Shown here: positions 9,752-46,067 of the stretch, in pieces
How positions within the stretch are numbered: position 1 is the first letter of the stretch
How the letters are laid out: every line of letters begins with the position of its first letter
Assembly (NCBI RefSeq): GCF_001182045.1
Contig: NZ_CVTY01000006.1
Span: forward strand, 521,376-585,375
Length of the DNA: 64,000 bases
Direction: 5' to 3'
Origin: Dakarella massiliensis
Lineage (GTDB): Bacteria; Pseudomonadota; Gammaproteobacteria; Burkholderiales; Burkholderiaceae_F
The notes under the pieces: model-generated
Databases searched by the model: none
What the model saw: the letters and a program-made list of their open reading frames with translations, nothing else
What the model was told of the DNA's origin: nothing
Position numbers and translations under genes: made by a program

Positions 9752-9754
9752 ACC

Positions 9755-27693: not shown

Positions 27694-28695
27694 TCATTTT
27701 CTCACGTAGATCGAATTGAATACCTGGTAGGCGAGTTTACGGTATTTCTGTGTTGATAAATCCGTGGTCCTGAGATCCTTTGATCCTATCGTGAACTGTA
27801 CGTTCACAGCCTTGTTTTCCACAAGGAAAAGCATGTAAAAGGTGTGCAGATAGAGAACATTTCCAAGCCGCTCGGTCTTCACGGTCGCGTCAGCGAGAAT
27901 CGCGGGGTAGGAATCGAGCATCGTGGCTCTCGCGTCCCCGCGTTTCACGATTTCACCAACCGGCGGAAAGATGTCTGTCCAGAAATCGGGAGACTTCACC
28001 ACTTCTTTGAGAACGGGGAGCTCCCAGTTCGCCTTAACTTCCGGATCCGGATTGGTGTCGATTCCGATCACGGAGATCAGCACCGTCTGTTCATCCGCCT
28101 TCATCCATTCGCTCACTACATGCGGGCGGACGGTTTTCGTTTTCTGCACCCAGGAGAGCGGGAACGAGATCTCGATATTGAGCCCCTGAGCCTTGGGGTT
28201 CCCTTTTGTCGAATAGGTTTCTTTGTTCCTCGAGAACTCTTCTGCCGGGTTATGGGTGAAGGAGACGTCGGACAGCGTCCGGAAAATCCGGTCCGTCAGT
28301 TCTGTCGGCTGATCAAGCGTGGCAATAAAGAGATCAAGCTGCTTCTCCGCGAGTTCCTCGTTCCTGAACTTCACGTCCGGCATCAGCTTCCCGATCCGTT
28401 CGTTTGATTTCGCGAGCACCTTGATCCCGAAATCCCCGAAGCATTCAAAGTGTTTCCGCACCGCGGCTTCGGCTCCCGGAAACCGATCCCGGAAGCGGCG
28501 CTGAAACATGAGAACATCCGGCGTGAGAGCGGGGTACGAATGCATGATTTCCGTGAGCGCGGTCTTCTGATACTCCACGTAGCCGTAGGCCTCGGCGAGA
28601 TTCCGGATATCGGATTCCCCAAGACCGTGAGCGGACGCCGCGCCGCTGATTGAGGTGAAGAAGAGGGCAGAGAGAATCAGAGCGGCGGTTTTCAT
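27694..28695 (-). CDS. Periplasmic protein of an uncharacterised family (paralogue 1 of 3)
   Basis: A 333-residue protein with a Sec signal (cleavage after ASA, then HGLGESD). Helical N-terminal half: LAEAYGYVEYQKTALTEIM and FPGAEAAVRKHFECFGDFG. The centre has TLSDVSFTHNPAEEFSRNKETY. The C-terminal half (ISFPLSWVQKTK, then MKADEQTVLISVIGI) resembles a PsbP/DcrB-type fold. Two paralogues lie at 36811 and 38144 and share the same order of motifs. Function unknown. I chose the ATG at 28695 because it begins the signal peptide. Confidence 0.72.
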   Translation of the reverse strand: MKTAALILSALFFTSISGAASAHGLGESDIRNLAEAYGYVEYQKTALTEIMHSYPALTPDVLMFQRRFRDRFPGAEAAVRKHFECFGDFGIKVLAKSNERIGKLMPDVKFRNEELAEKQLDLFIATLDQPTELTDRIFRTLSDVSFTHNPAEEFSRNKETYSTKGNPKAQGLNIEISFPLSWVQKTKTVRPHVVSEWMKADEQTVLISVIGIDTNPDPEVKANWELPVLKEVVKSPDFWTDIFPPVGEIVKRGDARATMLDSYPAILADATVKTERLGNVLYLHTFYMLFLVENKAVNVQFTIGSKDLRTTDLSTQKYRKLAYQVFNSIYVRK

Positions 28696-28845
28696 AGGAA
28701 AACGATCTTTTGAATTAAGTGCTTCTTCGATTCTGAACGGTTTCAGTAACCAAGGCAATGGATACGAATACGGAACGTGTCAGTATTCGGATTGAAGAGT
28801 TTTTATGTGTATGATGTGTATGAAAAATAATCGGAAGCCGAAATC

Positions 28846-29341: not shown

Positions 29342-29999
29342 ATGGCACTTCAGACTGACACCCCGGCACTTCCCCCGCTTATCCGCGTCGTGGACGATAA
29401 CGACACGCTTCGGCAGTTGCTTGAATTCATGCTGCAGTGCGAGGGGTATGAGGTCGTGTCCTACGCGAGCGCCATGGATTTTCTGAAGTCTGACACCCCA
29501 AGCCGCCCCGGGTGCCTGATCCTCGATATCCAGATGCCGGAAATGAGCGGACTTGATCTCTTTGACCGGCTGAATCACCGGGGGTACGAAGTCCCGGTGA
29601 TCTTCCTCACGGCGCATGGCGACACCGATATGGCGGTGGGCGCGATGCGGGATGGGGCGTGCGACTTTCAGACAAAAATCGATCAACGTGGAGAAGTTCC
29701 TCCCGGCGGTCGCGCGGGCGCTAGAAAATGACCGTCTGCGGCGTGAAGGCATCAGCCGCGATATCCGGGAAGAGGTGAAGCTTTTCCAGAGTCTTTCGGA
29801 GAGGGAAGAAAAAATCTGCCGCCTCACGATCCAGGGCTTTGTGAGCCGGGCGATCGGGGAGCGGCTCGAGATTTCGCACCGAACGGTGGAGCACTACCGG
29901 GGATCCGCCCTTAAGAAACTCGGGCTTCATTCCTCCGCCGACCTCGCACAGTTTTTCGCGCGGGTTGACGCGTTCCTCGCCGCGAACCCGGAGCGGTAA
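29342..29999 (+). pseudogene. LuxR/FixJ-type response regulator, frameshifted (module 2)
   Basis: A receiver with Asp62 in LILDIQMPE, then a LuxR-type helix-turn-helix (LTIQGFVSRAIGERLEISHRTVEHYRGSALKKLG). The two halves lie in different frames. The break is at the TTT run 29666-29668, where one extra T converts the expected DF-x-QK stretch. The downstream frame resumes as FRQKSINVEKFLPAVARALE. The residue after the conserved Lys is Ser instead of Pro. It is the first gene of the module that includes flavoprotein 2, cytochrome and kinase. Sequencing error and true loss cannot be told apart here. Confidence 0.82.
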
Positions 30000-30077: not shown

Positions 30078-30161
30078 GAAACACAATTTCTCCTGAGAAG
30101 AGGGGATTCGGGTGACCGGATGTCCTCACAAGACCAAGAACTCACTCATGGAGAGATATGT

Positions 30162-31580
30162 ATGCTGACTCGGAGAAATTGGCTGAAAGCCGGTGTCGCG
30201 GCAGCGGCCGCGGGTACCGCGAGTGTCGCTCAGGCTGCGACAGGAAAAGCTTCCCCGTCCCAGAAGTCGAACATCAATAAGACGCTTCCGTCCGAAACCT
30301 TTGACTGCGTCATTCTCGGCGCGGGCACCGGAAGCCTCGTCACCGCGATTGAGGCCTTTGACCGCGGTCTGAAGCCTGTGGTGCTCGAAAAGATGTCCTG
30401 GGCCGCCGGTAACTCCATTTTCGCGTCCGGCGGTATCGCCGCCTGGGGCACCGACCTTCAGAAGGCTCAGGGATTCAACGAAACGAAAAAGGCGTTCCGC
30501 GCTGACATGATGAAAGTGTCGCAGAACCGCGCCGATCCCGCGCTCGTCGACACCTATGTTGAAAATATCGGCCCCGATATCGAGTGGCTGCAGAAGAAGA
30601 TCGGCGTGAAGTTCGCGAAGATCCGCAGCCTCCCGTGGCCGCTCCTTCACCGCAAGATCCCGGTCCGCTTCAACACGAAAGGTCTGAAACTCATCACCGA
30701 TAACCAGTATCGGATCGTGGGCGTTGAGTGCCTGACGGACGACGGCCTCAAGAACTACATGGCGCGTGACGGTGTCGTGATCGGTACCGGCGGCTTCTCC
30801 GCGAACCGCGCGATGCTCTGCCGCTATATGGGAGGTCCGCTCTCCCGCCTCGTACTCCGCGGATCTCAGTACGTCACGGGTGAAAACGTCTCGATGACGG
30901 AGCCGCTTGGCGCGATGCTCGTTCACATGGACCAGTTCCACTGCGGTCCGATCGTGGAGAACACCCACGCGAATCCGAACTTCGTGATTGATGCCGGCAC
31001 GGGTCTTGATGTGAACTGCCAGGGCCAGCGCTTCATGGATGAAGTGTTCACGTACACGCAGAAGTCGATGGCGACCGCGACGAAGACGAAGGAAAACAAG
31101 GCCTATCACCTGATTGACGCGAACTGGCCGCGCTCCGAAATGGCGGCGAAGAAGTTCCTCGGGATGAATAGCGAAGTGATCATCGCGAACACCCCGGAAG
31201 AACTCGCGCAGAAGATGGGGCTGAAGCCCGAAGTCTTCACGAAGCTTTTCGCCGAATACAACAAGGCGCTCGCGGACGGAAAGCTGAAGGATATGAATCC
31301 GCCATGCTCCCTCAAGGATCCGAAGCCCCTCAATAAGCCTCCGTACTACGCGTTCCCGTTCCAGGGCGGTATCACGGCCACGTTCGGCGGCCCGAAGATC
31401 AACTCTAAGGCTCAGATCGTGAGTAACGAAGGCGTCCCGTTCAAGGGTCTCTACGCGGTCGGCAACGCCGCGGGCGGTCTCTTCTTCGGAAACTATATCG
31501 GCGGCTCGCAGCTTGGCGGTGCCACTGTGTTCGGCCGCATTGCCGCGGCTGATATGGCTTCAAAGCATAAGAACGCTTAA
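30162..31580 (+). CDS. Tat-exported FAD-dependent reductase (module 2)
   Basis: A roughly 472-residue flavoprotein. A Tat signal (LTRRNWLKAGVAAAAAG) is followed by the FAD motif GAGTGS at about 53-58 and a C-terminal KGLYAVGNAAGGLFFGNYIGG. The residue aligned with the fumarate reductase catalytic Arg (E+4 in GQRFMDEVFTY) is Tyr298, the substitution known in urocanate reductase UrdA. A stretch of about 25-30 residues that other family members have between GVKF and KIPVRF (containing the GGHSVAR-like substrate loop) is missing. This may be a subfamily trait or an in-frame deletion. The ATG at 30162 has a GGAGAG ribosome site. The cytochrome gene follows after 20 bp. Confidence 0.87.
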   Translation: MLTRRNWLKAGVAAAAAGTASVAQAATGKASPSQKSNINKTLPSETFDCVILGAGTGSLVTAIEAFDRGLKPVVLEKMSWAAGNSIFASGGIAAWGTDLQKAQGFNETKKAFRADMMKVSQNRADPALVDTYVENIGPDIEWLQKKIGVKFAKIRSLPWPLLHRKIPVRFNTKGLKLITDNQYRIVGVECLTDDGLKNYMARDGVVIGTGGFSANRAMLCRYMGGPLSRLVLRGSQYVTGENVSMTEPLGAMLVHMDQFHCGPIVENTHANPNFVIDAGTGLDVNCQGQRFMDEVFTYTQKSMATATKTKENKAYHLIDANWPRSEMAAKKFLGMNSEVIIANTPEELAQKMGLKPEVFTKLFAEYNKALADGKLKDMNPPCSLKDPKPLNKPPYYAFPFQGGITATFGGPKINSKAQIVSNEGVPFKGLYAVGNAAGGLFFGNYIGGSQLGGATVFGRIAAADMASKHKNA

Positions 31581-31600: not shown

Positions 31601-31939
31601 ATGAAAAACTTAATCGTTATGACGCTCGCCATGCTGATCGCGGGGTCCGCCGCGGCTGCCGGAACGACTGACCACTTCCTCGCGGACCGTCACGTCGAGC
31701 GCGGCGTGAAGTGCGAGTCCTGCCACGTGAATGGCGACACCACGAAACCGGTCCGCAAAGCGCAGTGCCTCGTGTGCCACAAGTCTTACGAAGCGCTCGC
31801 GAAGAAGACCGAGAACGTTCACCCGAACCCGCACTTCAACCACTACGGCGAACGCGACTGCACGACGTGCCACAAGGGTCACCAGCAGAGCACGCTTTCC
31901 TGCAGCCAGTGCCACAAGTTCAATCTGAAGACGCCGTAA
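31601..31939 (+). CDS. Periplasmic tetraheme c-type cytochrome (module 2)
   Basis: A 112-residue protein with a Sec signal (MLIAGSAAAAG) and four CxxCH sites: CESCH, CLVCH, CTTCH and CSQCH. It resembles the cytochrome at 9395, including SYEALAKKT. It should deliver electrons to the reductase encoded just upstream. Gene order is reversed relative to module 1, where the cytochrome comes first. Confidence 0.93.
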   Translation: MKNLIVMTLAMLIAGSAAAAGTTDHFLADRHVERGVKCESCHVNGDTTKPVRKAQCLVCHKSYEALAKKTENVHPNPHFNHYGERDCTTCHKGHQQSTLSCSQCHKFNLKTP

Positions 31940-32108: not shown

Positions 32109-33983
32109 TCAGGAAATCGGATGAGCCGGAGCTGGGATCGTGACGGTCACGGCAAGTCCCCCGGCGGCACCCGGGTTAAAGGCGATCGTTCCCGAGTGGT
32201 TCTGGATGATGGTGCGGACAATGGCGAGCCCAAGCCCGAGCCCCTCAGGCTTCGCGCTCTTTGTGGCGTACCCGAGACTCTCCAGCCGCTCTTTTGTGAG
32301 GACCTCACCGGTGTTCTGAATCGTGAGCCGGATCGATTCCCCATCCGCCGTTTCAAACCGGTTAAGCACCACCGAGACCCGGGCGTCTGCGCCTCCCTTC
32401 CGGTCCGCGGCTTCAAGCGCGTTTTTGATGAGATTCACGACCGCGACTTCAATCTCAAGCCGGTCCCCCTCGATCAGGCACCCAGGGCGGGTATCAGATT
32501 GAATCGCGGTCCGGTAGCGGCTCGAGTCCTCGAGATTCGAGACGGAGCGCGTCACAAGGTCCGAAAGATCAATCACGGTCCGGGTGTCCGAGCCGCTCGA
32601 CCGCTTCGCGTAGTCCCGGACCTTCGTCACGATTTCGTCCGCCTTCAAGGCTTCGCTTCGAATTGTGGTGAGGCCTTTCTGCATCATGGCTTCGGAATTC
32701 GGCCGATGCATGTCTGAGAGTCTCAGAAGGCTCTGCACGTAATTCACGATTGTCGCGAGGGGCTGCCGGAGTTCATGAACGACCATGGAGCTCATCTGCC
32801 CGATCATCCCGTTTTTCTGAAGCGACGCGAGATGCTCGTTTGCCCGACGCGTGCGTTCTTCGAGTTCTTTTTGCTTTGCGTAGGCTTTTGTGAGTTCACG
32901 GGTCCTTCGCTCCACCAGCCGGTCACTCCGGACCGAATGAAGAAGGAGCCCGATGACCGCGGCGATAAAGAGCGTGAGGAACGGCCAGTATTCGGAGAGG
33001 AACCGCCTCAGGGTCCAGTGCCGCAGGTACTCATACGGCCCGATCTTAAGTTCCTTGAAGAGGGTGTCGACCGGGGTGAAATCTGTCGCCATCCCCCAGT
33101 GGAGGTTCCCGGGGATCGGTTTCATCGAGAGGAGGGTGGACGCGGCGAGCCTCGCGACATCCGGTGTCGCGTGAGGCGTAATCGTCACGGTCCAATTCGG
33201 GTAAAGCGCCGTGCTTCGAATGCAGCGGAAGTCTTTCGTTTCCGGTTTCGCGCCGACGACAGCGAGGTCTGAAATATCTTTCCCTTCGGATGCCATATCT
33301 TCAAGGAAACAGGTTCGCAGCACGCCGACATCCGCTTCCCCGTTCCGGAGCGCCGTAACGACAGACGGCATATCGTTCAGCTTCACAATCTGATCCGAAA
33401 AGAACCGGTCGGGGTTGAAGCCCTCCCGCAGGAGTTCCCCCATCGCGACCTGGAAGCCAGTGAAGGCCTTGGGGCCGCTCGTCACGAGCCTCAGTCCCTC
33501 CAGATCTTTCAGACTCTGGTACGTCCGGTCTCCTTTCCGCACGACAAAAACGGAGCCTTCCGCGTGATTCGGATCCGGAAAGCGATCCGACACGAGCTAC
33601 CCGATATCGCGGCTTCCGATGTCAGCCGCCCGGCGGTACGTCCCCGCGGAGCTCAGCACCAGGTCCGTTTTCTTCGGATTGATCCGTTCCCCTGAAAACA
33701 CCTCGGCGTAAAAGTGATCCCGCCCGAACGCTTTTTGAAACGCGCGCACCGTCGGCATGATGATCGCGTCATTCTGGTTCGGCTGCGAGAAGTGCGAGAC
33801 CTGCATCCGGACCACGTCCGGGGCGTCCTTCCGCGCCGCGGTTTCGGGAGTGAGTACGCGCCCGATCGGGTACGGCTCATCGATCCCGGACGCGCCCGCC
33901 GGCGTAACAAGAAGCGGGAGAGCAAGAAAGCCCGCGATCAGGCAGAGGCTCACAGGTTTCAGGCGGTATCTCGCGCGGCGCAT
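32109..33983 (-). pseudogene. PhnD-domain sensor histidine kinase with in-frame TAG (module 2)
   Basis: A TtrS-like kinase: signal peptide (CLIAGFLALPLLVTPAGA), periplasmic sensor, one transmembrane segment (FLTLFIAAVIGLLLHSV), phosphoacceptor His in SSMVVHELRQPLATI, and ATPase motifs NLIKNALEAAD and GLGLGLAIV. A TAG codon at 33597-33599 interrupts the sensor domain after SRDIG. Reading resumes in the same frame with VSDRFPDPNHAEGSVFVVRKGD. An internal GTG restart at 33593 would lack signal and part of the sensor. This is a substitution-type lesion, harder to blame on indel errors. It faces the cytochrome gene and presumably worked with the regulator at 29342. Confidence 0.85.
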
Positions 33984-34052
33984 GGGAATAAACGAATAAA
34001 GGTTCACGGTAACGCCTATAAGTATAGGGAAGAGGACTCGGCCCCTCACAAT

Positions 34053-34179: not shown

Positions 34180-36582
34180 TCAGGCGTTCTTCGCCTTAGC
34201 CTGGTTCTGGGCGCGGAGCATGTTAAGCGACGACCCATAACGGAACCACTCGATCTGACGATCGGTGTAGGTGTGGTTCACCTGGACACGGTCCTGAGAC
34301 CCATCGGCGTGACTGAGGATCACGGTGAGCGGTTTACCAGGCTTGAAGTCCTTCATGCCAACCACCGAGATGCGGTCCTTCTCCTGCACCTTGTTCCAGT
34401 CATCCGGATTCGCGAAGGTGAGCGCGAGGATGCCCTGCTTCTTCAGGTTCGTCTCGTGAATTCGGGCGAAGCTCCTCGCGATGATCACCTGGACATTGAG
34501 GTAGCGGGGCTGCATCGCGGCCTGTTCGCGGGACGACCCTTCACCGTAGTTTTCGTCCGCCACGACGCACGAGAACTGGTTCGCGGCCTTATAGCTCTTC
34601 GCGACAGAGCTCACCTTGTCGTAGGTCCCCGTCTTCTGATTGAAGACGTGGTCGAGTTTCCCAGGCTGGAAGGCGTTATCAGCGACAGAAAGCGTGTTAT
34701 CCGAAATCCGGGAGATGTTCCCAACGTAGTGAATCCACTTGCCGGCAGGCGAAATGTGGTCCGTCGTGCACTTCCCCTTCACCTTGATGAGGAGCGGAAG
34801 ACCCTGGATATCCTTCCCGTTCCAGGCGGGGAAGGGGTCAAGCAGCCGCAGGCGGTCGTAGCTCGGGTCGATCTTGATCACTTTCGTCTTAAAGGTCGCC
34901 GTGTGGCAGCCAGTGCCGGCGCGGGCAAAGCCCTTCGGCGGGAGTTCATTTCCGTGCGGGACTTCGAGTTTCACCGCCTTTCCGTCCTTCCCCGTCACGG
35001 TATCCGTCATCGGGTTAAAGGAGAGACGGCCGCCGAGCGCGTAAGCGACCGCGATATCCGGGGACACGAGGAACGCTTCAGTGAGCGGGTTCCCGTCGTT
35101 ACGCTTCCGGAAGTTGCGGTTGAAGCCGTGAACGATCGTGTTCTTACGCTTCGGGTTGTTCTTCCGGTTCCACATGCCGACGCACGGCCCGCAGGCATTC
35201 GCGAGCACCGTGACACCGAGTTTCTGGAAGACCTGCGTGAGACCGTCGCGGTCCATCGTGGCCTTCACGAGGTTGGAGCCTGGCGACAGGAACATCGGGC
35301 ACTTCACAGAAATCCCGTGATCGAGCGCCTGCTGCGCGATGGAGGCGGCGCGCGAAATGTCTTCGTAGGATGAATTCGTGCAGGAACCGATCAGCACCGC
35401 TTCGATCTTGTCCGAAAGCCCCTTCTTCTTCACGTTCTCCTTCATTTCGGAGAGGTTCATGTCAGCGTCAGGCGAATACGGTCCGGACACCTGGGGTTCA
35501 AGAGTCGAGAGGTCGATCGTGATCACCTGGTCATAGAATTTGGACGGGTTCTCGTACACCGCCTTATCGGCTCTGAGGTCGCCCGCGATCTTATTTGCCA
35601 TCAGGACGATCTCTTCGCGGCCTGTCTTCCGGAGGTAATCCATCATGTGGGAGTCATACGGGAAGACTGAGCTTGTCGCGCCGAGTTCCGCGCCCATGTT
35701 CGCGATCGTCGCTTTGCCGGTCGCGGAAAGGGTATCCGTGCCCGGACCGAAGTATTCAATAATGGCGTTCGTGCCGCCTTTGACGGAGAGAATTCCGAGG
35801 AGCTTGAGGATCACATCCTTCGGAGTGGACCACCCCTTCAGTTCCCCGGTGAGCTTCACGCCGATCACCTTCGGCACCGGAAGCTCCCATTCGACCCCCG
35901 ACATGCAGTCCACGGCGTCCGCGCCGCCGATACCGATCGCGATGCCGCCAAGCCCCGAGCCATTCGGCGTGTGAGAGTCGCAGCCCACAATGAGGCAGCC
36001 CGGATACGCGTAGTTTTCGAGTGTCTCCTGATGAATAATGCCCGCGCCCGGTTCCCAGAAGTCGATACCGAGCTTATCGCTCACGTCGCTCAGGAACTTG
36101 TAGGTCACGCGGTTATCGTAGTTTGAGACCTTCAGATCCTTGATCGCGCCGTCGCTCGCGAGCGTCAGGTGATCGCAGTGGATGGAGGAGGGAAGCTGGA
36201 CCTTCGGGAACTCCGCGACGAGGAACTGCTGCATCGCGGACTGCGCGGTGAGGTCTTCCATCACGAGCTGATCCGGGCGGAAATTCGCGAATTCGTGGCC
36301 GCGCTTGAAGTCCCTCGCATCCTCGATGTGATAGAGATGCGTGTAGAGGATCTTTTCAGAAAGCGTGAGCGGACGGTTAAATCCCTTCCGCACAGCGGCG
36401 AGCCGCGTCGGGAAATTCTTATAGAACGCGCGGACGTGCTCGATATTCCTGATCGGATGCTGAACGTTGATGTCCTTCGTCGCTGCGGAAGCGACCGCGG
36501 ACGCTGCGCCATTCATACTCACCGCGGCGGCGGTAAGACCTGAGGCTTTCAAGAGGCTGCGGCGTGAAACCGAAACGGGCAT
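34180..36582 (-). CDS. Aconitate hydratase with a Tat signal peptide (exported aconitase)
   Basis: An 800-residue mitochondrial-type aconitase interconverting citrate, cis-aconitate and isocitrate. Catalytic features are intact: SIHCDHL (about 133-139), the [4Fe-4S] ligands Cys401 (GSCTNSS), Cys464 and Cys467 (ANACGPCVG), spaced 63 and 3 as in pig aconitase, and the swivel-domain GEGSSREQAAMQPR. Uniquely, the first 34 residues are a textbook Tat signal, SRRSLLK followed by a hydrophobic run ending ASA-VASAA. Tat exports folded, cofactor-loaded proteins, so a periplasmic Fe-S aconitase is mechanically feasible. AAAGGAGA precedes the ATG at 36582. It is next to respiratory module 2 and carries the TAGGTAG motif upstream. 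Periplasmic citrate/aconitate use is inferred. Confidence 0.93.
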   Translation of the reverse strand: MPVSVSRRSLLKASGLTAAAVSMNGAASAVASAATKDINVQHPIRNIEHVRAFYKNFPTRLAAVRKGFNRPLTLSEKILYTHLYHIEDARDFKRGHEFANFRPDQLVMEDLTAQSAMQQFLVAEFPKVQLPSSIHCDHLTLASDGAIKDLKVSNYDNRVTYKFLSDVSDKLGIDFWEPGAGIIHQETLENYAYPGCLIVGCDSHTPNGSGLGGIAIGIGGADAVDCMSGVEWELPVPKVIGVKLTGELKGWSTPKDVILKLLGILSVKGGTNAIIEYFGPGTDTLSATGKATIANMGAELGATSSVFPYDSHMMDYLRKTGREEIVLMANKIAGDLRADKAVYENPSKFYDQVITIDLSTLEPQVSGPYSPDADMNLSEMKENVKKKGLSDKIEAVLIGSCTNSSYEDISRAASIAQQALDHGISVKCPMFLSPGSNLVKATMDRDGLTQVFQKLGVTVLANACGPCVGMWNRKNNPKRKNTIVHGFNRNFRKRNDGNPLTEAFLVSPDIAVAYALGGRLSFNPMTDTVTGKDGKAVKLEVPHGNELPPKGFARAGTGCHTATFKTKVIKIDPSYDRLRLLDPFPAWNGKDIQGLPLLIKVKGKCTTDHISPAGKWIHYVGNISRISDNTLSVADNAFQPGKLDHVFNQKTGTYDKVSSVAKSYKAANQFSCVVADENYGEGSSREQAAMQPRYLNVQVIIARSFARIHETNLKKQGILALTFANPDDWNKVQEKDRISVVGMKDFKPGKPLTVILSHADGSQDRVQVNHTYTDRQIEWFRYGSSLNMLRAQNQAKAKNA

Positions 36583-36810: not shown

Positions 36811-37842
36811 TCAGTTGAAGATTACTTTAACGGAATTAAAGATGTGATTTCTTAACTTTCGATATTTTTCCGCTGTCTTTTCAGTTGTTTCGGCATCCGG
36901 TGACGCAATCGTGAACTCAACCCGGATGTTTTCGTCAAAATCAAAGTATTCCGCGACGTATGAATGATAGAAAAATGGGTGGTTCTTTTCTATTTTGTCG
37001 CTTCCTTTCCAGTCGAGCAGAAGCGCTGTTCCGGTTGCGCTGTCGCCCACAAAGTCAGCATCAATCCGGCCTTTAGCAATGGATTCATCCTCCAGAGGAC
37101 CGTACTCTTTCCAGATCGCCGCACTATCTTCCTTGATGCGTTTCATCAAATAGCGGTATTCCCTAAAAAACGGAAGATCATCGGTCTGTCTTTCCCGCAA
37201 GACTAAAACGGTAATTAACGCGTGTTCATCGGACTTAGTCCAATAACCAAGGGAAAAAGGATGATCCAGTGGTTTCTTTTCCCAGGATTCCGGGAGAGAA
37301 ATCTGAAACTTCCGAGGCGATTTGTTCGGTTCTCGAGGCAAAGACTCTGAGTATGTCTTTTTGTGAACGAAAAGTTCTTCTGCCGGATATTCAGAGAAAG
37401 TCACATCACTGACCGTTGCGAAAATCCGCTTTTCATCCTGAGTCGGGTGGTCCGTAACCCCGGTGAACTGATGTACTAATTTTAGTGCTTCATTTTTATT
37501 ATGGAATCTGCGGTTCGAGTTGAACTTTCGGAGTTTGGCTTCCAGCTTTCCGGTTAATTTTTCTCTGGTCAGGCCAAACTCGTCAATGTGACTGAGCAAG
37601 GCCTCTTCCGAATTCGGATAGTCAGTATTCCAAACCGCCTCGCTGGCACTGACTTCTATCATTAAATGTTTGTCATTCGGAAACTGTTTCCGGGCGTTTT
37701 CGATCAGCTGTTTCTGCTGGTACACAAATGCGTAAGCCTCAACAAGGTTCTGAAGATCAGTCTGTGTAAACCCGTGCGCCAAAGAGCTTTGGCTGAAGAG
37801 GCAGGTGGCAGCGCCGGCAATAGTGATAATGAGTTTCTTCAT
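36811..37842 (-). CDS. Periplasmic protein of an uncharacterised family (paralogue 2 of 3)
   Basis: A 343-residue protein with a Sec signal (cleavage before HGFTQTDLQ). It shares with 27694 and 38144 the helical start (LVEAYAFVYQQKQLIENARKQFP), the pair WNTDYPNSEEALLSHIDEFG, the centre TVSDVTFSEYPAEELFVHKKTY and the C-terminal strand pattern LPESWEKKPLDHPFSLGYWTKSDEHALITVLV. No catalytic motif stands out. It lies between the exported aconitase and paralogue 3, on the same strand, so an envelope function near respiration is possible but unproven. Confidence 0.72.
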   Translation of the reverse strand: MKKLIITIAGAATCLFSQSSLAHGFTQTDLQNLVEAYAFVYQQKQLIENARKQFPNDKHLMIEVSASEAVWNTDYPNSEEALLSHIDEFGLTREKLTGKLEAKLRKFNSNRRFHNKNEALKLVHQFTGVTDHPTQDEKRIFATVSDVTFSEYPAEELFVHKKTYSESLPREPNKSPRKFQISLPESWEKKPLDHPFSLGYWTKSDEHALITVLVLRERQTDDLPFFREYRYLMKRIKEDSAAIWKEYGPLEDESIAKGRIDADFVGDSATGTALLLDWKGSDKIEKNHPFFYHSYVAEYFDFDENIRVEFTIASPDAETTEKTAEKYRKLRNHIFNSVKVIFN

Positions 37843-38143: not shown

Positions 38144-39163
38144 TTATTTGTCTGCGGAAACTAACCGGATAGAACTGAGGATCTGGTCTCTCAGCATCTG
38201 GTACTTGTTACCCGCCCGCTTCGCTGCCTCGGGATCGCATGACGCCACATAAAATTCCACATCCACGTACTGCGATCCATCCTGATAGATCGCTGAAGTG
38301 ATGTGCGTGTAGAAAGGCGTATTGTCTCTCGAGAATTGTCCGTCCCACTCGAGAAGGATCACCGGTGTCCGGTCGAAAATGACGACCTTCGAAGAGCCCT
38401 TCTTAACGAGCTCGCTTTCAAGCGGTCCGAACCGCTTCCAGATTTCCGGCGTCGATTCGATTGCCTTCAGGTTCCGGTAAATGAAATCGGCAGGGTTGTA
38501 GTCATCGTCGACAGGCCGCCTCGCGCCGATCGAGACGACGACGTCCTCATCATTCTTCGTCCAGTAGCCAAGATGCCCCGGAAAACTCATCGGCGTTTCT
38601 TCCCAGGAATCCGGGATCAGGATTCGGAATTTTTTCTCCCCCGCGGTATTCCGAAGCGGATATTTGATTTCGTGCGCTGTCCGATGGAACGCGAACTCTT
38701 CTTCCGGGTAGTCCGAGAAGGCGGCATCCGATAGTGTCCGGCGGCCCCGGTTTTCCTTCTCGGTTGGACTCTTGGACACCAGGCTGTAGTGCAGCACCAC
38801 GGCTTTGGCCTGATTCGCGTCCCGGAATCGGAGATTCTTATCCGAGGCTCCGAGCGTTTCCGCGGTGAGCTTCGCGATATCAGCCCGGCTGAGACCGAAG
38901 TGTCCGAGATGCGTGATCAGCGCGTTTTCCGCGTCCGGATAGAGCAGATTCCATGTGAGACGCGAGGTATCAACCACGCCCAGCACCCCAACGTCGTTCC
39001 TGAATTGCTTCTCCGCCGCCGCGAGCACCTGCTGCCGCTGATAGACATAGGCATACGCTTCTGTCAGATTCATCAGGTCGTTCTGAGTCATTCCGTGGGC
39101 CGACACACCCTGGCTCATAAGGGCCGTGGCAGCGCAGCAGAGAGCCAATGCGATTTTCTTCAT
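38144..39163 (-). CDS. Periplasmic protein of an uncharacterised family (paralogue 3 of 3)
   Basis: A 339-residue protein from the ATG at 39163, with a Sec signal (cleavage after GVSA, before HGMTQNDLM). The family pattern is clear: LTEAYAYVYQRQQVLAAAEKQF, WNLLYPDAENALITHLGHFG, TLSDAAFSDYPEEEFAFHRTAH and IPDSWEETPMSFPGHLGYWTKNDEDVVVSI. Closest to the 36811 copy in sequence and position, suggesting local duplication. Function unknown. The gene is followed by its own terminator. Confidence 0.72.
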   Translation of the reverse strand: MKKIALALCCAATALMSQGVSAHGMTQNDLMNLTEAYAYVYQRQQVLAAAEKQFRNDVGVLGVVDTSRLTWNLLYPDAENALITHLGHFGLSRADIAKLTAETLGASDKNLRFRDANQAKAVVLHYSLVSKSPTEKENRGRRTLSDAAFSDYPEEEFAFHRTAHEIKYPLRNTAGEKKFRILIPDSWEETPMSFPGHLGYWTKNDEDVVVSIGARRPVDDDYNPADFIYRNLKAIESTPEIWKRFGPLESELVKKGSSKVVIFDRTPVILLEWDGQFSRDNTPFYTHITSAIYQDGSQYVDVEFYVASCDPEAAKRAGNKYQMLRDQILSSIRLVSADK

Positions 39164-39370
39164 AGCGAGATAAGCGGGGATCAGGAACCACAGTTCCGGG
39201 CCCACTTCAGTTTGAGTTATGAAAACATCATATTGCTATCAATGGTAAACAGCGCTATAGATCGCCAGAAACCCGGGATTCTGGCGAGTTCCCGGTGATT
39301 CCCATAACGGTCTTTTTGATCAGCCGTAATGCCATATTCTTTCTCTTTGGAAGGGCTGTCCGCAGGGAAA

Positions 39371-40444: not shown

Positions 40445-40598
40445 ACAGAGTTAAGGATACGGATCCGAGTACGTAAGTAGTTGAACTTAGATTAAACATT
40501 GTGGCGGGAATCCGACTGCCGCGTACGGGCGTCCATGGACGGCTGTGAAGATTGTGTGGGATTGAATTTATTTGATTTATCCGCGCTCTGAAACGAGA

Positions 40599-42449
40599 AT
40601 GTCAGAGTACGTATCACTTATTCATTCAACGGACACCCGCCCGAGGTGTTTTTTCACCGTGCTCAGAGCCTCTCTATCCGTCATCAGTCTTTTCGCAGCT
40701 CTGATCGCTTTCGGTCCCTATCCCGCCAGCGCGTCAGAGCGCCCCGTCACGATCGGAATACAGGAGTCGCTCGACCCTGATTTCTTTGTGAATACGATGG
40801 GGCCGACACTGAGGACACTGAGAGACAAAAATCCCGGCAGGACTTTCCGGACCGAAGTCCTGTCGATGGAAGGGCTGACTGACGCGATCAAAAATCATCA
40901 GATTGATTTTTTCATGTCGGACAGCGGGTTCTTCTCCTACCAGGCGCTCGAATCCGGGGCGACGAATGTCGCGGCGAGAAGCGTTTCGGGGATGAACCCC
41001 GGTCGCAGCACGAGCGCCGTGGTTTTTGTCCGATCCGATCGGTCTGGTCTCCAGTCGATCGGAGACCTGAAGGGGAAAACTGTCGTCAGTCAGGATCCGA
41101 ACGATTTCTCTTCCTGGGTGGTTTTCCAGGGGGAAGTCGCGAAAGCGGGGTTTGATCCGGATAAATTCTGGGGGCGGGAGCTTTTTACCCACTATGACTA
41201 TCCGAATGTGGTTGACGCGGTGCTTTCAGGCGACGCCTATGTCGGCATCCTGAAGGCCTGTGATCTCGAGAAACAGCTCACGCTTCACGCCTTTAAGCCG
41301 GACGCATTCCGGGTGATCCGCGAGCAGACAGACAAAAAATCCGCCTGCCGCCGTTCCGCTCCGCTGTACCCGGGGGTCGTATTCGCGGCGCTCCCCTATA
41401 CCGATCCCGCACTTGTGAAGGCGACCGCGCTCACGCTGCTCGCCGAAAAACCGGCCTATGACGGGACTGTCTGGGCGATCGCGAATGACTCAGCCGCGGT
41501 CACGAATCTCTATAAAGTGCTGAAATCCGGCCCATACGCTTACCTGAAGGAAATGAACTGGGAAGCGTTCTGGGAAAAGTACCGGTACGCGGTTTATGTT
41601 CTCGCCGCGCTGATTCTCCTCTGGGCAGCTCACACAGTGCGTGTGAACCGGCTGGTGGATATCCGGACGCGGGAACTCCGGGAGTCGATGGCGGAAAAAG
41701 AAAGACTCGAAAAAGAGAATCAGATGAAGAGCCAGACGCTCTCACAGCTTGAAAGGGCCGGGACCGTGAGCCAGATGTCGCTGCTCGTCGCGCACGAACT
41801 CCGGCAGCCTCTGACCTCTCTCATGAATTTCGCGGGCGGTCTGCGGCTCTACCTCTCGAGGATCAAAGGCGATGATCCGACCGTGACGGAAACCACCCGG
41901 GTGATAGAGGAAGAGGCGGTCCGGGCCTCTGATATCGTGGAAAAGGTTCGCCGCTACGCGAAACAGGATCGCCCGCGGCCGGTTCCGGTGACGATTGAGA
42001 AACTGGTGAATGAGGCTGTCAGGCTTTTCAGCCGCACCTCAGCTGCGGAGGGGATCCATATCGAGCCGAGCGTAAATCCGGACATCACGGTGCTCGGGGA
42101 TCCGATGGAACTCGAGCTCGTCCTCGTGAATCTCCTCAAAAACTCAGCCGCCGCGATGCGGGATGAGACGGACAAACGGATCACGATCCGGGTCCTCGAT
42201 CTTGGGAACGACACGGCCAGTGTTGAAGTCACGGATAACGGGGTTGGCGTGTCCGAGGAAAAACTTCAGTCACTCAGCCGCCCGGTGACGAGTCTCAAAC
42301 CGGATGGGCTGGGTCTCGGCCTCAGTCTTGCCCGGTCGATTATCGAGCGCCACGGCGGCCATATCGGATTCCGGAGAGAAAAGAGGGGACTCACGGTGAC
42401 CGTCACCCTTCCCACCATCCACCCGGCCGCAAGAGGGAGCGAGGCATGA
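40599..42449 (+). CDS. PhnD-domain sensor histidine kinase (module 3, intact)
   Basis: A 616-residue TtrS-like kinase. It has a signal peptide (VISLFAALIAFGPYPASA), a periplasmic PhnD-like sensor (about 48-315: VTIGIQESLDPD, FFMSDSGFF, SIGDLKGKTVVSQDPNDFSS), a transmembrane segment (about 330-348), a short coiled coil, phosphoacceptor His399 in LLVAHELRQPLTSL, and ATPase motifs NLLKNSAAAM and GLGLGLSLARSI. It senses a small periplasmic molecule by a substrate-binding fold. The ATG at 40599 (MSEYV) is preferred over an upstream TTG. The regulator gene overlaps its end by four bases. It is the only one of the three such kinases here that reads intact. Confidence 0.9.
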   Translation: MSEYVSLIHSTDTRPRCFFTVLRASLSVISLFAALIAFGPYPASASERPVTIGIQESLDPDFFVNTMGPTLRTLRDKNPGRTFRTEVLSMEGLTDAIKNHQIDFFMSDSGFFSYQALESGATNVAARSVSGMNPGRSTSAVVFVRSDRSGLQSIGDLKGKTVVSQDPNDFSSWVVFQGEVAKAGFDPDKFWGRELFTHYDYPNVVDAVLSGDAYVGILKACDLEKQLTLHAFKPDAFRVIREQTDKKSACRRSAPLYPGVVFAALPYTDPALVKATALTLLAEKPAYDGTVWAIANDSAAVTNLYKVLKSGPYAYLKEMNWEAFWEKYRYAVYVLAALILLWAAHTVRVNRLVDIRTRELRESMAEKERLEKENQMKSQTLSQLERAGTVSQMSLLVAHELRQPLTSLMNFAGGLRLYLSRIKGDDPTVTETTRVIEEEAVRASDIVEKVRRYAKQDRPRPVPVTIEKLVNEAVRLFSRTSAAEGIHIEPSVNPDITVLGDPMELELVLVNLLKNSAAAMRDETDKRITIRVLDLGNDTASVEVTDNGVGVSEEKLQSLSRPVTSLKPDGLGLGLSLARSIIERHGGHIGFRREKRGLTVTVTLPTIHPAARGSEA

Positions 42450-43126
42450 CAATGGAAAATCTGAACCCGAAACTGAATCCTCTCGTCAGAATTGTGGACG
42501 ATGATGAGAGGGTCCGGCAGTCTGAAGCGTTTGTGCTGAGGCTCTCCGGCTGGGACGTGAAGGAGTACGAGAGCGCCGAGCGGTTTCTCGAGTCGGATGA
42601 CAAGGAGCGCTGCGGGTGCCTTGTTCTCGATATCCGGATGCCGGGGCTGAGCGGAATAGAGCTTCAGAAGGAACTGATCCGGCAAGGGCGCACGATCCCG
42701 ATCCTCTTTCTCACAGGCCACGGTGATCTGGATATGGCAGTTGCCGCGCTGAAACGCGGGGCAGCTGACTTTGTGCAGAAACCGATGCGTTCGGAGACAC
42801 TCACCGAGTCCGTGAAGCGGCTTGTCGCGTGGCATGAAGCCGTCTGCAGAAAGAGGATTGAAGCGAAAGCCGCGGCTGATAAGCTTCGGACACTCACGCC
42901 GAAGGAACTCGAAATCTGCCGCGAGGCCGCATCTGGGCTTCATAACAAAGAGATCGCCGAGAAACTCGGTGTCACCGAACAGACCGTGAAGATTCATCGC
43001 TGGAACGCGACCAATAAGCTTGAGGTGAAGAGCGCGGTGGAAATCGCTGAACTCCTTAAAAAAGCGGATGAAGCCGGGAAACCTGAAATTTTCCCGATCA
43101 CCGGCGGACTGAGTGAGGATGAATGA
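42446..43126 (+). CDS. LuxR/FixJ-type response regulator (module 3)
   Basis: A 226-residue regulator: receiver with acidic pocket DDD, phosphoacceptor Asp62 in VLDIRMPGLSG, switch Lys in DFVQKPMRS, and a C-terminal LuxR-type helix-turn-helix (LTPKELEICREAASGLHNKEIAEKLGVTEQTVKIH). Start overlaps the kinase stop, and its own stop overlaps the next gene, indicating coupled translation of kinase, regulator and flavoprotein. It should control the two downstream flavoproteins. Confidence 0.9.
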   Translation: MTMENLNPKLNPLVRIVDDDERVRQSEAFVLRLSGWDVKEYESAERFLESDDKERCGCLVLDIRMPGLSGIELQKELIRQGRTIPILFLTGHGDLDMAVAALKRGAADFVQKPMRSETLTESVKRLVAWHEAVCRKRIEAKAAADKLRTLTPKELEICREAASGLHNKEIAEKLGVTEQTVKIHRWNATNKLEVKSAVEIAELLKKADEAGKPEIFPITGGLSEDE

Positions 43127-44451
43127 TGGAAATCGCCTCTTCACGGAGAAAATTCATCATGGCGGCCGAAAACGGTCTCCGCGTTCTGGTTCTCGAAAAA
43201 GAGGAGCATATCGGCGGGAGCACAAGGATCTCAGGCGGCTTTTATTCCTGCGTCGACCCGGGCCGTCAGAACGCGCTGAGGATCCGGGATTCAGAGCCCT
43301 TTTTTCTCAGTCAGGTTCTTCAGAGCGGCGGAGGCCACTCGGACCCGGCGCTTGCCCGGACTCTGGTGTTCGGCGCGACCCCGATGCTCAGGTGGCTTGA
43401 GTCCCAGGGGATGAAATTCATGCCTTCTGTCACCGAGGCTTATGGCGCTGAGTGGCCGAGGGCCCATAAACCCCTGATGCCAAACGGCGAAGGCTATATC
43501 CGGACGCTCAGTAACCGGGCGTCCGCTCTTGGCGCGGAAATCAGGACGGGGACCGCCGCGGTGGCACTTCTTCAGTCTGACGGCCGAGTAACCGGGGTCA
43601 GGGTGAACGACCGAGGCACTCTCAGAAATCTGAACGCGAAAAAGGGCGTGATTCTCTCGAGCGGCGGCTTCGGCGCCAACCGGGAAATGATTCACCGCTT
43701 TGCGCCTAAATACGATGGGCTCACCACGAATGCCGCGCCGGGATCTACCGGAGAAATGATTCTCGAAGCGGAAAAAATCGGTTCCTCCCTCACCGACATG
43801 GATCGGATTCTCTGCAACCCCGGAGCCCCCGAGGGAAGGACGCACCACGCCCGTTTCCACATGATCGTGGATCAATTTATTCTGGTGAATCATCAGGGGA
43901 GGCGTTTTATCCGGGAGGACGCGCATCGGAATCAGCTGACAGACGCCGTGCTTAAGCTTCCTGAGCGGTACGCGTACACCGTGATCGACGATCGGGCATT
44001 CCGGAATCTCAGCATCCTCATGCAGAAAGAGGCGACGCTCGCGATTGAGACGGGGGACGCCTGGTGCGCGGACACGGTTCCGGAACTCGCCTCGCTCATG
44101 GGACTCCCGAAGGGAAATCTCGCACGGACCGTGGAGCAGTACAACCGCTCCGTCAAAACACGTCAGGATCCCCTCGGAAAAGCGGCTTCCGCGCTGAAAT
44201 CCCCGATTCTGAAGCCTCCGTTCTGGGGGTGCTACGCCGGCATGTCAACGCTTTACACGCTTGGGGGCGTGAGGATTTCACCTCAGGCCCGCGTCCTTAC
44301 AGCGTTGGGAAAGCCTATCCCGGGACTCTGGGCCGCGGGCGAAGTCACGGGCGGGGTTCATGGCGTTAACCGTCTGGGAGGCTGCGGAATTCCGGATGGA
44401 TTGGTTTTCGGGCGGATCGCGGGGCTGGATGCGGCAGGGATAAAGTCCTGA
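43123..44451 (+). pseudogene. FAD-dependent reductase lacking its Rossmann motif (module 3)
   Basis: A flavoprotein whose Tat start (SSRRKFIMAA) runs directly into ENGLRVLVLEKEEHIGGST. The rest of the signal and the GxGxxG nucleotide-binding strand, about 40-50 residues in relatives, are gone while the frame is kept. Without it FAD binding is unlikely. Downstream it looks normal: GGFGANREMIHRF, GRRFIREDAHR with Arg at the catalytic E+4 position, and GLWAAGEVTGGVHGVNRLGG. It overlaps the regulator stop by four bases. The most likely reading is a decayed paralogue in a module whose second flavoprotein (44565) is intact. Confidence 0.8.
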
Positions 44452-44564
44452 TTTTCACGCATCTAAAACTTTTGTTTAAGGATTTTCAGACGCCGCGAAA
44501 CTAGATTTTCTCTATAGAGCAAGGAACTCGAAAAACAGTTCCTCTATTCACTAAGGAGAGAATC

Positions 44565-46067
44565 ATGACCGTTAGTATCAACCGCCGGAATCTGCTTGGA
44601 GCCTCTATTACCGCGGGTCTCGCCGCCGCGGCCCCTGCCGCTTTTGCCCACCCGGCAGCAAAGATGCCCGCCAAATGGGATGAAACCTTTGATGTGGTCG
44701 TTATAGGCTCAGGATTCGCCGGACTCTCAGCCGCGATTGAAGCAAAGACCGCGGGCGCGAATGTCGTGGTGTTTGATCAGATGCCGATTCCGGGCGGAAA
44801 CTCCATCCTTTCAGCGGGCGGCTTCGCGGCTCCGGAGAACGACATGCAGAAGAAAGCCGGCATTCAGGACAGCCCGGAACTCCTTCTCAAAGACATGCTG
44901 AGAGCAGGCGGCAACCTGAATCAGGTGCAGTGCGCGAAGGTCGTGGCTTACGGCGCTTATGACTCGTACCGGTGGGCGACGGATTTCATCGGTGTGAAGT
45001 GGGACCGTCTCGGTTTCCAGGGCGGTCACTCCGTTGCCCGTTCCTGCAGTTTTAAGAATGGCACCGGAGCTGACATCATCGGGCCGATGCTCGATAAGTG
45101 CAAAGAACTGGGGATTCCGGTCCGGCTCCGAACCAAGATGACCAATATCGTGACGGACGATAAGGGCGCGGTGCTTGGGGTTGAGATTCTCAAAAACTTC
45201 CGGTTCCCGAACCAGAAGTCCGGCAAACCCGCTGCGGTCCGCGCGCTCCGCGGCGTGGTGCTCGGCGGCGGCGGATTCTCCCAGAACATCAAGATGCGCA
45301 TGATGCAGGACCCGCGGCTCACGTCGGAACTGGGTTCCACCAATCAGCCTGGTGCTGACGGCGCGGCCCTTCAGGCCGCCGAACGGATCGGCGCCGGTAC
45401 GACGCTGATGGATTGGATTCAGCTCGGCCCCTGGACGAGCCCGGACGAAGTAGGTTTCGGTGAATGCCCGAAATTTGTCGAGGCGTCTGTTGGCTACGGT
45501 CTCATGGTGGATCCGCAGACCGGGAAGCGTTTCGTCCAGGAAACCGGCAACCGCAAGGTCCGCGCGGACGCCATCATCGCGACCGGTCACCCCTCGATCA
45601 TCATGATTTCGGAAAAGAACATGAAGAAGCATGTGCCGCAGAGCACGGTGGACGCGGGTGTCAAGAATGGCTCGATCAAGCGGCTCGAGGGGCTAGACGC
45701 GGTGGCTGCCGCCTATAAGATCGATCCCGCGGCACTGAAGGCTACAGTCGCACGTTGGAATCAGGCGATCCAGAACCGGGCTGATCCGGATTTCCACGCC
45801 ATGATCTTTAAGGACGCGGAGCCGAACGAAGGCGTGTTTTACGCCTGCCGCCTCTGGCCTCGGGTGCACTACTGCATGGGAGGTCTGACCGTGACCCCGA
45901 AGGCCGAAGTGATTGACACTGACTTCAATATCATCCCGGGTCTCTTCGCTGCGGGTGAAATCTGCGGCGGTGTCCACGGCATGGTGAGACTCGGAACGGT
46001 GTCCATCGCGGACTGCGTCGTGTATGGCAGGGTCGCCGGAAAGAGCGCCGCGGCGCACCGGGCCTAG
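44565..46067 (+). CDS. Tat-exported FAD-dependent reductase, fumarate-reductase-like active site (module 3)
   Basis: A 500-residue flavoprotein: Tat signal (INRRNLLGASITAGL), FAD motif GSGFAG at 48-53, GGFSQNIKM, and C-terminal GLFAAGEICGGVHGMVRLG. The catalytic position (E+4 in GKRFVQETGNR) is Arg330, as in flavocytochrome c3, and the substrate loop GGHSVARS at about 153-160 is present. Of the intact reductases in this window it best fits a fumarate or other unsaturated dicarboxylate or tricarboxylate substrate. No dedicated cytochrome gene is adjacent. It has its own 113-bp leader and a GGAGAGAATC ribosome site. Confidence 0.88.
   Translation: MTVSINRRNLLGASITAGLAAAAPAAFAHPAAKMPAKWDETFDVVVIGSGFAGLSAAIEAKTAGANVVVFDQMPIPGGNSILSAGGFAAPENDMQKKAGIQDSPELLLKDMLRAGGNLNQVQCAKVVAYGAYDSYRWATDFIGVKWDRLGFQGGHSVARSCSFKNGTGADIIGPMLDKCKELGIPVRLRTKMTNIVTDDKGAVLGVEILKNFRFPNQKSGKPAAVRALRGVVLGGGGFSQNIKMRMMQDPRLTSELGSTNQPGADGAALQAAERIGAGTTLMDWIQLGPWTSPDEVGFGECPKFVEASVGYGLMVDPQTGKRFVQETGNRKVRADAIIATGHPSIIMISEKNMKKHVPQSTVDAGVKNGSIKRLEGLDAVAAAYKIDPAALKATVARWNQAIQNRADPDFHAMIFKDAEPNEGVFYACRLWPRVHYCMGGLTVTPKAEVIDTDFNIIPGLFAAGEICGGVHGMVRLGTVSIADCVVYGRVAGKSAAAHRA

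What the first reader, a model, noticed from the sequence alone, without database searches (positions are those of the whole stretch)
34180..36582. Aconitase with a Tat export signal: possible periplasmic citrate/aconitate metabolism
Seen: a full-length aconitase with all three Fe-S cysteines (401, 464, 467) and a clear N-terminal SRRSLLK Tat signal ending in Ala-x-Ala sites. Known: aconitases are cytoplasmic or mitochondrial, and Tat carries folded cofactor proteins. Inferred: it acts in the periplasm and makes cis-aconitate from imported-free citrate or isocitrate. This enoate resembles the substrates of the exported flavin reductases nearby, and its reduction would give tricarballylate. That would be a two-step citrate respiration outside the cytoplasm. 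Caution: the nearest reductase (30162) has Tyr at the catalytic position, so the 44565 enzyme (Arg) may be the better partner.
Basis: partly seen in the sequence, partly recalled or inferred. Interest (0 to 1): 0.93.

Follow-up and report, generated by a model that had tools for sequence, protein, structure and literature searches.

The report
Exported aconitase feeding a respiratory reductase
A bacterium of a gut-dwelling genus, in whose genome no citrate synthase or isocitrate dehydrogenase gene was found, carries two aconitases with an export signal, predicted to work outside the cytoplasm, where they would turn a citrate-like acid into a molecule that a neighbouring flavin enzyme likely uses as a stand-in for oxygen.

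Summary
In detail: window 34180-36582(-) encodes an 800-aa mitochondrial-type aconitase with a twin-arginine export motif. The motif is in 15 of 15 related loci found in the family, and these aconitases form one supported clade apart from shorter, signal-less enzymes. The genome has a second Tat-aconitase; searches found no signal-free aconitase, citrate synthase, isocitrate dehydrogenase or citrate-lyase alpha gene, so a TCA-cycle role is very unlikely.

The likely partner is the nearest flavoprotein (30120-31580), not the 44565 enzyme. A tetraheme cytochrome follows it. In four Sutterella-type loci aconitase, this reductase and a cytochrome lie in a row; orthologous sensor kinases sit beside the aconitase alone in Mesosutterella and beside the reductase alone in some Sutterella-type genomes.

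Best reading: extracytoplasmic dehydration of a citrate-like acid, then enoate reduction as anaerobic respiration (citrate to cis-aconitate to tricarballylate the leading case). Caveat: the window's clade has lost Arg580 (Val here), so its exact substrate is open. Export, substrate and direction are untested.

The parts
34180..36582 (-). Tat-signal mitochondrial-type aconitase, clade A (Arg580 to Val, Gln72 to Glu by 1aco numbering); signal about residues 1-33
30120..31580 (+). flavoprotein with a twin-Arg N-terminus and TcuA-like active site (H, Y, T, Y at Fcc3 363, 402, 504, 544; R at 336); predicted enoate (aconitate-type) reductase
31601..31939 (+). small cytochrome c with signal-like N-terminus and four CxxCH (PF14537), predicted electron donor to the reductase
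32109..34049 (-). sensor histidine kinase with PhnD-like domain; interrupted here by one in-frame stop (at about 33597), intact in G002 (L036)
29342..29996 (+). response regulator, matched in two frames (frame-broken) here; intact in G002 (L036)

Best explanation
The window encodes an aconitase with a twin-arginine export signal that is predicted to work in the periplasm, where it would dehydrate a citrate-like hydroxy acid to an enoate (cis-aconitate or a close analogue) that the neighbouring TcuA-like flavoprotein, predicted to be fed by a tetraheme cytochrome c, likely reduces to tricarballylate or its analogue as anaerobic respiration. Shown from sequence: the export motif and its conservation; no citrate synthase, isocitrate dehydrogenase or signal-free aconitase found in this genome; the TcuA-like residues and phylogeny of the reductase family; and the recurring gene neighbourhood and shared kinase clade. 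Inferred: actual export, the substrate, the direction of the reaction and the electron path from quinol. The reductase, cytochrome and two-component pair look like the older core module, because they also occur without aconitase. The exported aconitase would be an add-on that makes the acceptor from the more common hydroxy acid. Reduction would pull the aconitase equilibrium, which by itself favours citrate (recalled). The window copy belongs to a clade without Arg580, so its own substrate may be a relative of citrate rather than citrate itself; the second genomic copy (clade B) keeps Arg447, 452, 580 and 644.
For: Twin Arg in 15 of 15 family loci and one clade of Tat-aconitases, 100/98. TatC in 12 of 12 Tat-aconitase genomes. 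In G000: PF00330 gives two Tat-aconitases and two LeuC-type proteins only; no PF00285; the one PF00180 protein is LeuB; no PF03971; no PF04223. Citrate synthase was not found in 9 of 12 Tat-aconitase genomes. The reductase family is sister to TcuA, 100/99, and shares nine residues with TcuA that are rare in 30 other flavoproteins. Aconitase, reductase and cytochrome follow each other on one strand in L042, L085, L086 and L088, and lie within one 6.5-kb stretch in the window and L036. One kinase clade (98/97) holds kinases beside aconitase without the reductase within 3 kb (5 Mesosutterella loci), kinases of loci with both (L042, L086, L088) and kinases beside the reductase without aconitase (L108, L109, L115). 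The reductase family (E up to 1e-120) is in 12 of 12 Tat-aconitase genomes against 20 of 55 others (Fisher p 3.8e-5, not corrected for kinship).
Against: Clade A lacks Arg580 (V in 14, Y in 3 of 17 rows) and clade B has Q72 to H in 12 of 12, so neither clade has a fully canonical pocket. The reductase scores 195-233.5 bits against TcuA's 369-bit cut-off. It lies within 3 kb of the aconitase in only 6 of 15 loci, and the four Sutterella-type loci are from related genomes, not independent. 20 of 55 genomes have the reductase without Tat-aconitase, so its substrate need not come from aconitase. The window's own kinase is outside the shared kinase clade. TcuA's known direction is oxidation. TIGR01409 is below cut-off. 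Three g16 genomes keep citrate synthase, and one of them, G019, also has an AcnA-length aconitase. In the window the kinase and regulator genes are broken.
Confidence: 0.55

Rival explanations
1. The exported clade-A aconitase acts on a different 2-hydroxy acid that lacks or alters the carboxylate normally held by Arg580 (for example a 2-alkylmalate such as citramalate), and the reductase reduces that alkyl-enedioate. The scheme is the same two-step respiration with a different acid.
For: Arg580 is Val or Tyr in every clade-A row aligned, while the cluster cysteines and catalytic residues stay in all complete rows but one (P0012 has Tyr for C358). A passage of PMC7308503 says the small-subunit substrate recognition region sets substrate preference in the related isopropylmalate isomerase and homoaconitase; that this region matches the Arg580 stretch is recalled.
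Against: The partner reductase keeps the full TcuA signature. Clade A gains a basic residue at 1aco position 450, between Arg447 and Arg452, which might compensate.
Confidence: 0.25
2. The pair runs in TcuA's known direction: tricarballylate is oxidised outside the cytoplasm to cis-aconitate, and the exported aconitase hydrates it to citrate or isocitrate for uptake.
For: TcuA oxidises tricarballylate to cis-aconitate (title of a cited reference in PMC10468695). A DASS anion transporter lies near copy 2.
Against: In G000 no citrate-lyase alpha, isocitrate dehydrogenase or citrate synthase gene was found that could use the product. The flavoprotein plus tetraheme cytochrome layout is that of periplasmic enoate reductases such as Mrd/Mcc (PMC4427408).
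Confidence: 0.1
3. The exported aconitase simply interconverts citrate and isocitrate for import, signalling or iron handling, and its nearness to the reductase is incidental.
For: Nine of 15 aconitase loci have no TcuA-like reductase within 3 kb; in L035 one family member (L069) lies about 8 kb away.
Against: The shared kinase clade and the repeated gene neighbourhood in two genera; no cytoplasmic isocitrate dehydrogenase was found in G000 (isocitrate lyase was not tested).
Confidence: 0.08
4. An ordinary cytoplasmic aconitase with a mis-called or non-functional N-terminal extension.
For: One of two Tat models is below cut-off; no localisation data exist.
Against: Motif in 15 of 15 loci, with a purine-rich ribosome-binding-like stretch before the long start in the 14 loci checked; no TCA partner genes found in G000.
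Confidence: 0.05

Closest known systems
Mitochondrial-type aconitase (TIGR01340; 1aco; Parabacteroides and similar enzymes)
   Same: Full-length match, [4Fe-4S] cysteines and nearly all compared active-site residues; 57% identity to Parabacteroides enzymes over 93% of the query
   Different: Tat signal, predicted extracytoplasmic site, Arg580 to Val and Gln72 to Glu, no TCA partners found in the genome
TcuA, FAD-dependent tricarballylate dehydrogenase (NF006130)
   Same: Sister clade of the partner reductase; nine shared signature residues. On a Hydrogenophaga plasmid tcuA lies beside genes annotated as 3-isopropylmalate dehydratase subunits and PrpF
   Different: None of the 5 TcuA rows has residues at the twin-Arg columns; the oxidative direction is the known one; the partner here is below TcuA's cut-off and has a tetraheme cytochrome beside it
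Mrd/Mcc methacrylate reductase system of Geobacter sulfurreducens AM-1 (PMC4427408, passages)
   Same: Tat flavoprotein plus separate periplasmic tetraheme cytochrome reducing an enoate as electron acceptor
   Different: No dehydratase that makes the acceptor is described in the passages seen; different flavoprotein active-site class (inferred)
Periplasmic fumarate and urocanate reductases (Fcc3, UrdA)
   Same: Same FAD_binding_2 superfamily; exported
   Different: The partner lacks the Arg402, His504 and Arg544 equivalents

Membership tests
Mitochondrial-type aconitase TIGR01340 | Whole-protein score over the curated cut-off | tested here: met
   933.4 bits against 825.35
Mitochondrial-type aconitase TIGR01340 | Three Fe-S cysteines and catalytic residues (D100, H101, H147, D165, H167, S642; list recalled) | tested here: met
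   window row
Mitochondrial-type aconitase TIGR01340 | Complete substrate-binding set, including Gln72 and Arg580 (roles recalled) | tested here: not met
   Glu and Val in the window protein; filed as an aconitase by family, substrate left open
Mitochondrial-type aconitase TIGR01340 | Citrate/isocitrate isomerase activity | not testable with these tools
   needs an enzyme assay
Tat substrate | Twin-arginine motif conserved in close relatives | tested here: met
   15 of 15 loci; 16 of 17 closest database proteins
Tat substrate | Tat signal profile over cut-off | tested here: inconclusive
   first 60 residues: PF10518 22.8 against 22.7; TIGR01409 13.1 against 16.7. Copy 2 had no PF10518 hit and 16.6 against TIGR01409's 16.7
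Tat substrate | TatC in the genome | tested here: met
   12 of 12 Tat-aconitase genomes
TcuA tricarballylate dehydrogenase (partner 30120-31580) | Score over NF006130 cut-off 369 | tested here: not met
   194.9 bits; four relatives 219.1-233.5
TcuA tricarballylate dehydrogenase (partner 30120-31580) | Groups with TcuA and shares its signature residues | tested here: met
   clade 100/99; nine shared positions
Fumarate reductase Fcc3 type (partner 30120-31580) | Arg402, His504, Arg544, His365 | tested here: not met
   Y, T, Y, G
Mrd/Mcc-type flavoprotein plus tetraheme cytochrome | Tat flavoprotein next to a small cytochrome with four CxxCH | tested here: met
   four CxxCH in the window, L036, L085, L088; three in L042, L086. 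Twin Arg in 15 of 15 family rows, though PF10518 is below cut-off for 30120 (15.9 against 22.7)

The most novel reading that the evidence does not exclude
A new mode of anaerobic respiration: Sutterellaceae dehydrate a hydroxy-tricarboxylic acid outside the cytoplasm with an exported [4Fe-4S] aconitase and respire the resulting enoate with a TcuA-like, cytochrome-fed reductase, so that citrate itself serves as terminal electron acceptor and tricarballylate is excreted. Two aconitase clades with differently altered pockets would give two parallel versions for two related acids.
Probability: 0.45. Interest if true: 0.93.

Novelty: new variant of a known kind. Interest (0 to 1): 0.86.

Why it matters
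Aconitase is a textbook enzyme of the cytoplasm or mitochondrial matrix. An exported one, in organisms where the TCA enzymes around it were not found, would be a clear case of a central enzyme moved to another compartment and job. It would add citrate, or a close relative, to the respiratory electron acceptors of gut bacteria, and predict tricarballylate as a microbial product of citrate. Tricarballylate and citrate bind metals, so the host side is of interest too (recalled). It also gives a concrete medium hypothesis for Mesosutterella multiformis, described as difficult to cultivate because its metabolic requirements are unknown (PMC7765368 passage). The 30120 family would be a first place to look for an aconitate reductase.

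Tried and rejected
Rejected: TCA-cycle role (no citrate synthase, IDH or signal-free aconitase found in G000). Rejected: 44565-46067 as partner (fumarate/urocanate-type residues, own kinase and regulator at 40572-43126). Rejected: fumarate reduction by 30120-31580 (clamp residues missing). Rejected: filing 30120-31580 as TcuA itself (cut-off not met). My notebook entry wrote His504 to Ala; the alignments show Thr at 504 and Ala at 505, and the report uses that.

Led nowhere or limited: the search for related loci in genome contigs returned 2 loci. Paper searches: no listed title or abstract start reports an exported aconitase or aconitate respiration. Listed of found: 15 of 16, 15 of 15, 15 of 141, 5 of 5, 10 of 71, 10 of 18; open-licence papers only. 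The role of Arg580 could not be cited: 'Arg580' had no occurrence in the 10 of 27 papers listed, so it is recalled. No structure was predicted. PF03971 is a weak control, ringing in 1 of 14 control genomes. In one search many genomes had only 22 candidates scored, so its match counts are lower bounds. Of G000's 49 PF00890 matches, 30 got loci.

Rows dropped: L084 left out of the count as a duplicate of P0002; P0004 left out of the aconitase tree as a hybrid. Before the tree four short or duplicate flavoprotein ORFs (window 5246, L058 3042, L052, L073) were left out. Between eight rows (five long branches, P0155, P0225, L066) were dropped and six plasmid-record rows added; in both trees the TcuA rows and the 30120 family group together. 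The Azospirillum row falls with TcuA and was left out of the comparison. In one search the L108 kinase is split and counts as two rows. Of the 103 shorter aconitases, 7 were put in the tree.
Full report
OBSERVATION. The ORF at 34180-36582(-) is 800 aa long, starts with ATG and has an aggag upstream. It belongs to the mitochondrial-type aconitases: TIGR01340 933.4 bits, cut-off 825.35; 1aco is the best solved relative. C401, C464 and C467 match the cluster cysteines. The N-terminus SRRSLLK plus hydrophobic stretch and Ala-x-Ala passes PF10518 narrowly (22.8 against 22.7) and misses TIGR01409 (13.1 against 16.7). Conservation is the stronger evidence. In the family scan, 12 of 67 genomes carry 15 such loci, and all 15 have the twin Arg (in L089 the sequence just after it is masked). 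Of the 120 best of 7996 database hits, 16 have the motif, all among the first 17; the other 103 are 747-752 aa long and lack it. A tree with seven of those 103, a Fibrobacteres piece and 1aco puts all Tat-aconitases in one clade (100/98) with two subclades, A (18 rows, window included) and B (12 rows), each 100/100.

NOT A TCA ENZYME. G000 (98.8% complete) has four PF00330 proteins: the window aconitase, a second Tat-aconitase (C6:217108, QVSRRTLLK), and two LeuC-type proteins of 473-475 aa, judged by length and, for one, by its place beside leuB. No citrate synthase was found. The only PF00180 protein is LeuB, 485.7 bits. No PF03971 and no citrate-lyase alpha was found. Of the 12 Tat-aconitase genomes, citrate synthase was not found in 9 (five same-genus genomes, G013, G084 at 79% completeness, G085, G090) and was found in 3 (G019, G069, G072); of five relatives without Tat-aconitase 4 have it. 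Of the 12, only G019 also has an AcnA-length aconitase; G069 and G072 are 87-88% complete. One of the 12, G090, has citrate-lyase alpha. TatC is present in 12 of 12.

ACTIVE SITE. At 24 1aco positions the window protein differs at two: Q72 to E and R580 to V. R580 is V or Y in all clade-A rows (14 and 3 of 17 counted), and clade A has Arg or Lys at position 450, where the signal-less rows have mostly Ala. Clade B keeps R580 but has Q72 to H in 12 of 12. Nine shorter, signal-less database enzymes and 1aco keep Q72 and R580. From recall, Arg580 contacts a substrate carboxylate. So both Tat clades may have shifted specificity, the window's clade more.

PARTNER. The window has regulator, flavoprotein (30120-31580) and tetraheme cytochrome (31601-31939) on plus, then kinase and aconitase on minus; G002 has the same order with kinase and regulator intact. 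In L042, L085, L086 and L088 a homologous flavoprotein (44-47% identity to 30120) and cytochrome follow the aconitase on the same strand. Gaps from aconitase to the flavoprotein's longest ORF are about 170, 415, 1750 and 340 bp. Cytochromes have four CxxCH (window, L036, L085, L088) or three (L042, L086). So 6 of 15 loci have such a reductase within 3 kb. In L035 a family member (L069) is about 8 kb off. L038 has a UrdA-like protein next to the aconitase (58% identity to UrdA); L041 has a 44565-type protein 2.4 kb away; in the other loci no TcuA-like reductase was seen within 3 kb.

WHY TYR IS RIGHT. Against Fcc3 the 30120 protein has Tyr for Arg402, Thr for His504, Tyr for Arg544 and His for Gln363. 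Five annotated TcuA proteins have the same four. A scan of 15 family members, 5 TcuA and 30 other flavoproteins lists eleven columns shared by the first two groups and held by at most a quarter of the third; nine of them are Fcc3 positions 328 G, 336 R, 337 G, 363 H, 402 Y, 504 T, 507 F, 540 F, 544 Y (the other two, 483 and 550, also vary within TcuA). In a 51-row tree the family (100/99) and TcuA, with one Azospirillum protein, form a clade at 100/99. It is not TcuA by NCBIfam (195-233.5 bits, cut-off 369). TcuA turns tricarballylate into cis-aconitate (reference title seen in PMC10468695). The arginine clamp of UrdA and Fcc3 is described in PMC7921117 (passages).

REGULATORY LINK. Kinases of one type (PhnD-like domain in the two scanned) sit immediately beside the aconitase in 9 of 15 loci and about 6 kb away in L088. 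In a kinase tree a 12-row clade (98/97) holds five Mesosutterella kinases beside clade-B aconitase with no TcuA-like reductase within 3 kb, kinases of three loci with both enzymes (L042, L086, L088) and of three loci beside the reductase with no aconitase (L108, L109, L115). Thus orthologous sensors lie with one enzyme, the other or both. The window's own kinase is outside this clade. Five other reductase-side kinases (L110-L114) and three more (L119, L122, L123) are not in it either.

CORE AND ADD-ON. The reductase family (E up to 1e-120) is in 32 of 67 genomes: 12 of 12 with Tat-aconitase and 20 of 55 without (Fisher p 3.8e-5, not corrected for kinship; G069 has only a 43% paralogue). I took 16 reductase loci away from Tat-aconitase, one per genome, from 16 of the 32 genomes: 15 have the cytochrome beside the reductase and 11 have kinase and/or regulator beside it. 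So reductase plus cytochrome is the core, and aconitase looks like an addition in some lineages. This also means that the reductase substrate can come from elsewhere, for instance dietary aconitate (inference).

MECHANISM. Hydroxy acid enters the periplasm; exported aconitase dehydrates it; the TcuA-like flavoprotein, fed through the tetraheme cytochrome, reduces the enoate. Citrate, cis-aconitate and tricarballylate are the leading set. The layout parallels Mrd/Mcc (PMC4427408 passages), with a dehydratase placed in front. Export, substrate, direction and electron source are inferred. Confidence 0.55 for the two-step scheme; lower for citrate as the substrate of the window copy, because of Arg580.

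LITERATURE. The listings (titles and abstract starts, most of them cut lists) showed no exported aconitase and no aconitate respiration; the library is open-licence only. PMC8184944 and PMC7308503 were seen as passages, PMC7765368 and PMC4392294 as passages. The M. multiformis paper PMC7765368 has no occurrence of citrate or aconit.

Noticed in passing
window 32109-34049 and 29342-29996: The kinase beside the aconitase has one in-frame stop and the regulator is split over two frames here, while both are intact in G002 (L036). Genuine decay or assembly error is not decided.
   Followed up: partly
window 40572-46067: A separate co-directional module: sensor kinase, LuxR-type regulator, and two flavocytochrome-type proteins (43123 and 44565), the latter with fumarate/urocanate-type active-site residues.
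   Followed up: partly
window 5246-11299: A third module: tetraheme cytochrome (9395-9751) and twin-Arg flavoprotein (9755-11299), with a kinase and a regulator-like ORF on the other strand (7145-8899, 6505-7161) and another flavoprotein at 5246-6508; 9755-11299 is a long branch with no clear relative in the tree.
   Followed up: partly
G000 genome: 49 PF00890 matches (some are pieces of one gene) in a 2.48-Mb genome: a large set of flavin reductase-type proteins.
   Followed up: partly
window 27694-28758, 36811-37842, 38144-39205: Three related proteins of 343-354 aa with signal-like N-termini (36811 is 29% and 37% identical to the other two) flank the aconitase locus; no Pfam or NCBIfam match for the latter two.
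   Followed up: no
L035:3776-5188 (G000 second Tat-aconitase locus): A DASS-family anion transporter (363.9 bits, TIGR00785) lies close to the second Tat-aconitase and its regulator, also in G002 (L037); it could carry a di- or tricarboxylate.
   Followed up: partly
L090 (Hydrogenophaga plasmid NZ_CP044550.1): tcuA sits in a run with genes annotated as 3-isopropylmalate dehydratase large and small subunits, PrpF and tripartite tricarboxylate binding proteins: a TcuA-dehydratase pairing without the Tat-aconitase layout.
   Followed up: no
L038:7055-11425 (G019): A UrdA-like flavoprotein (58% identity to UrdA) lies directly upstream of a Tat-aconitase in a genome that keeps citrate synthase and an AcnA-length aconitase.
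   Followed up: no
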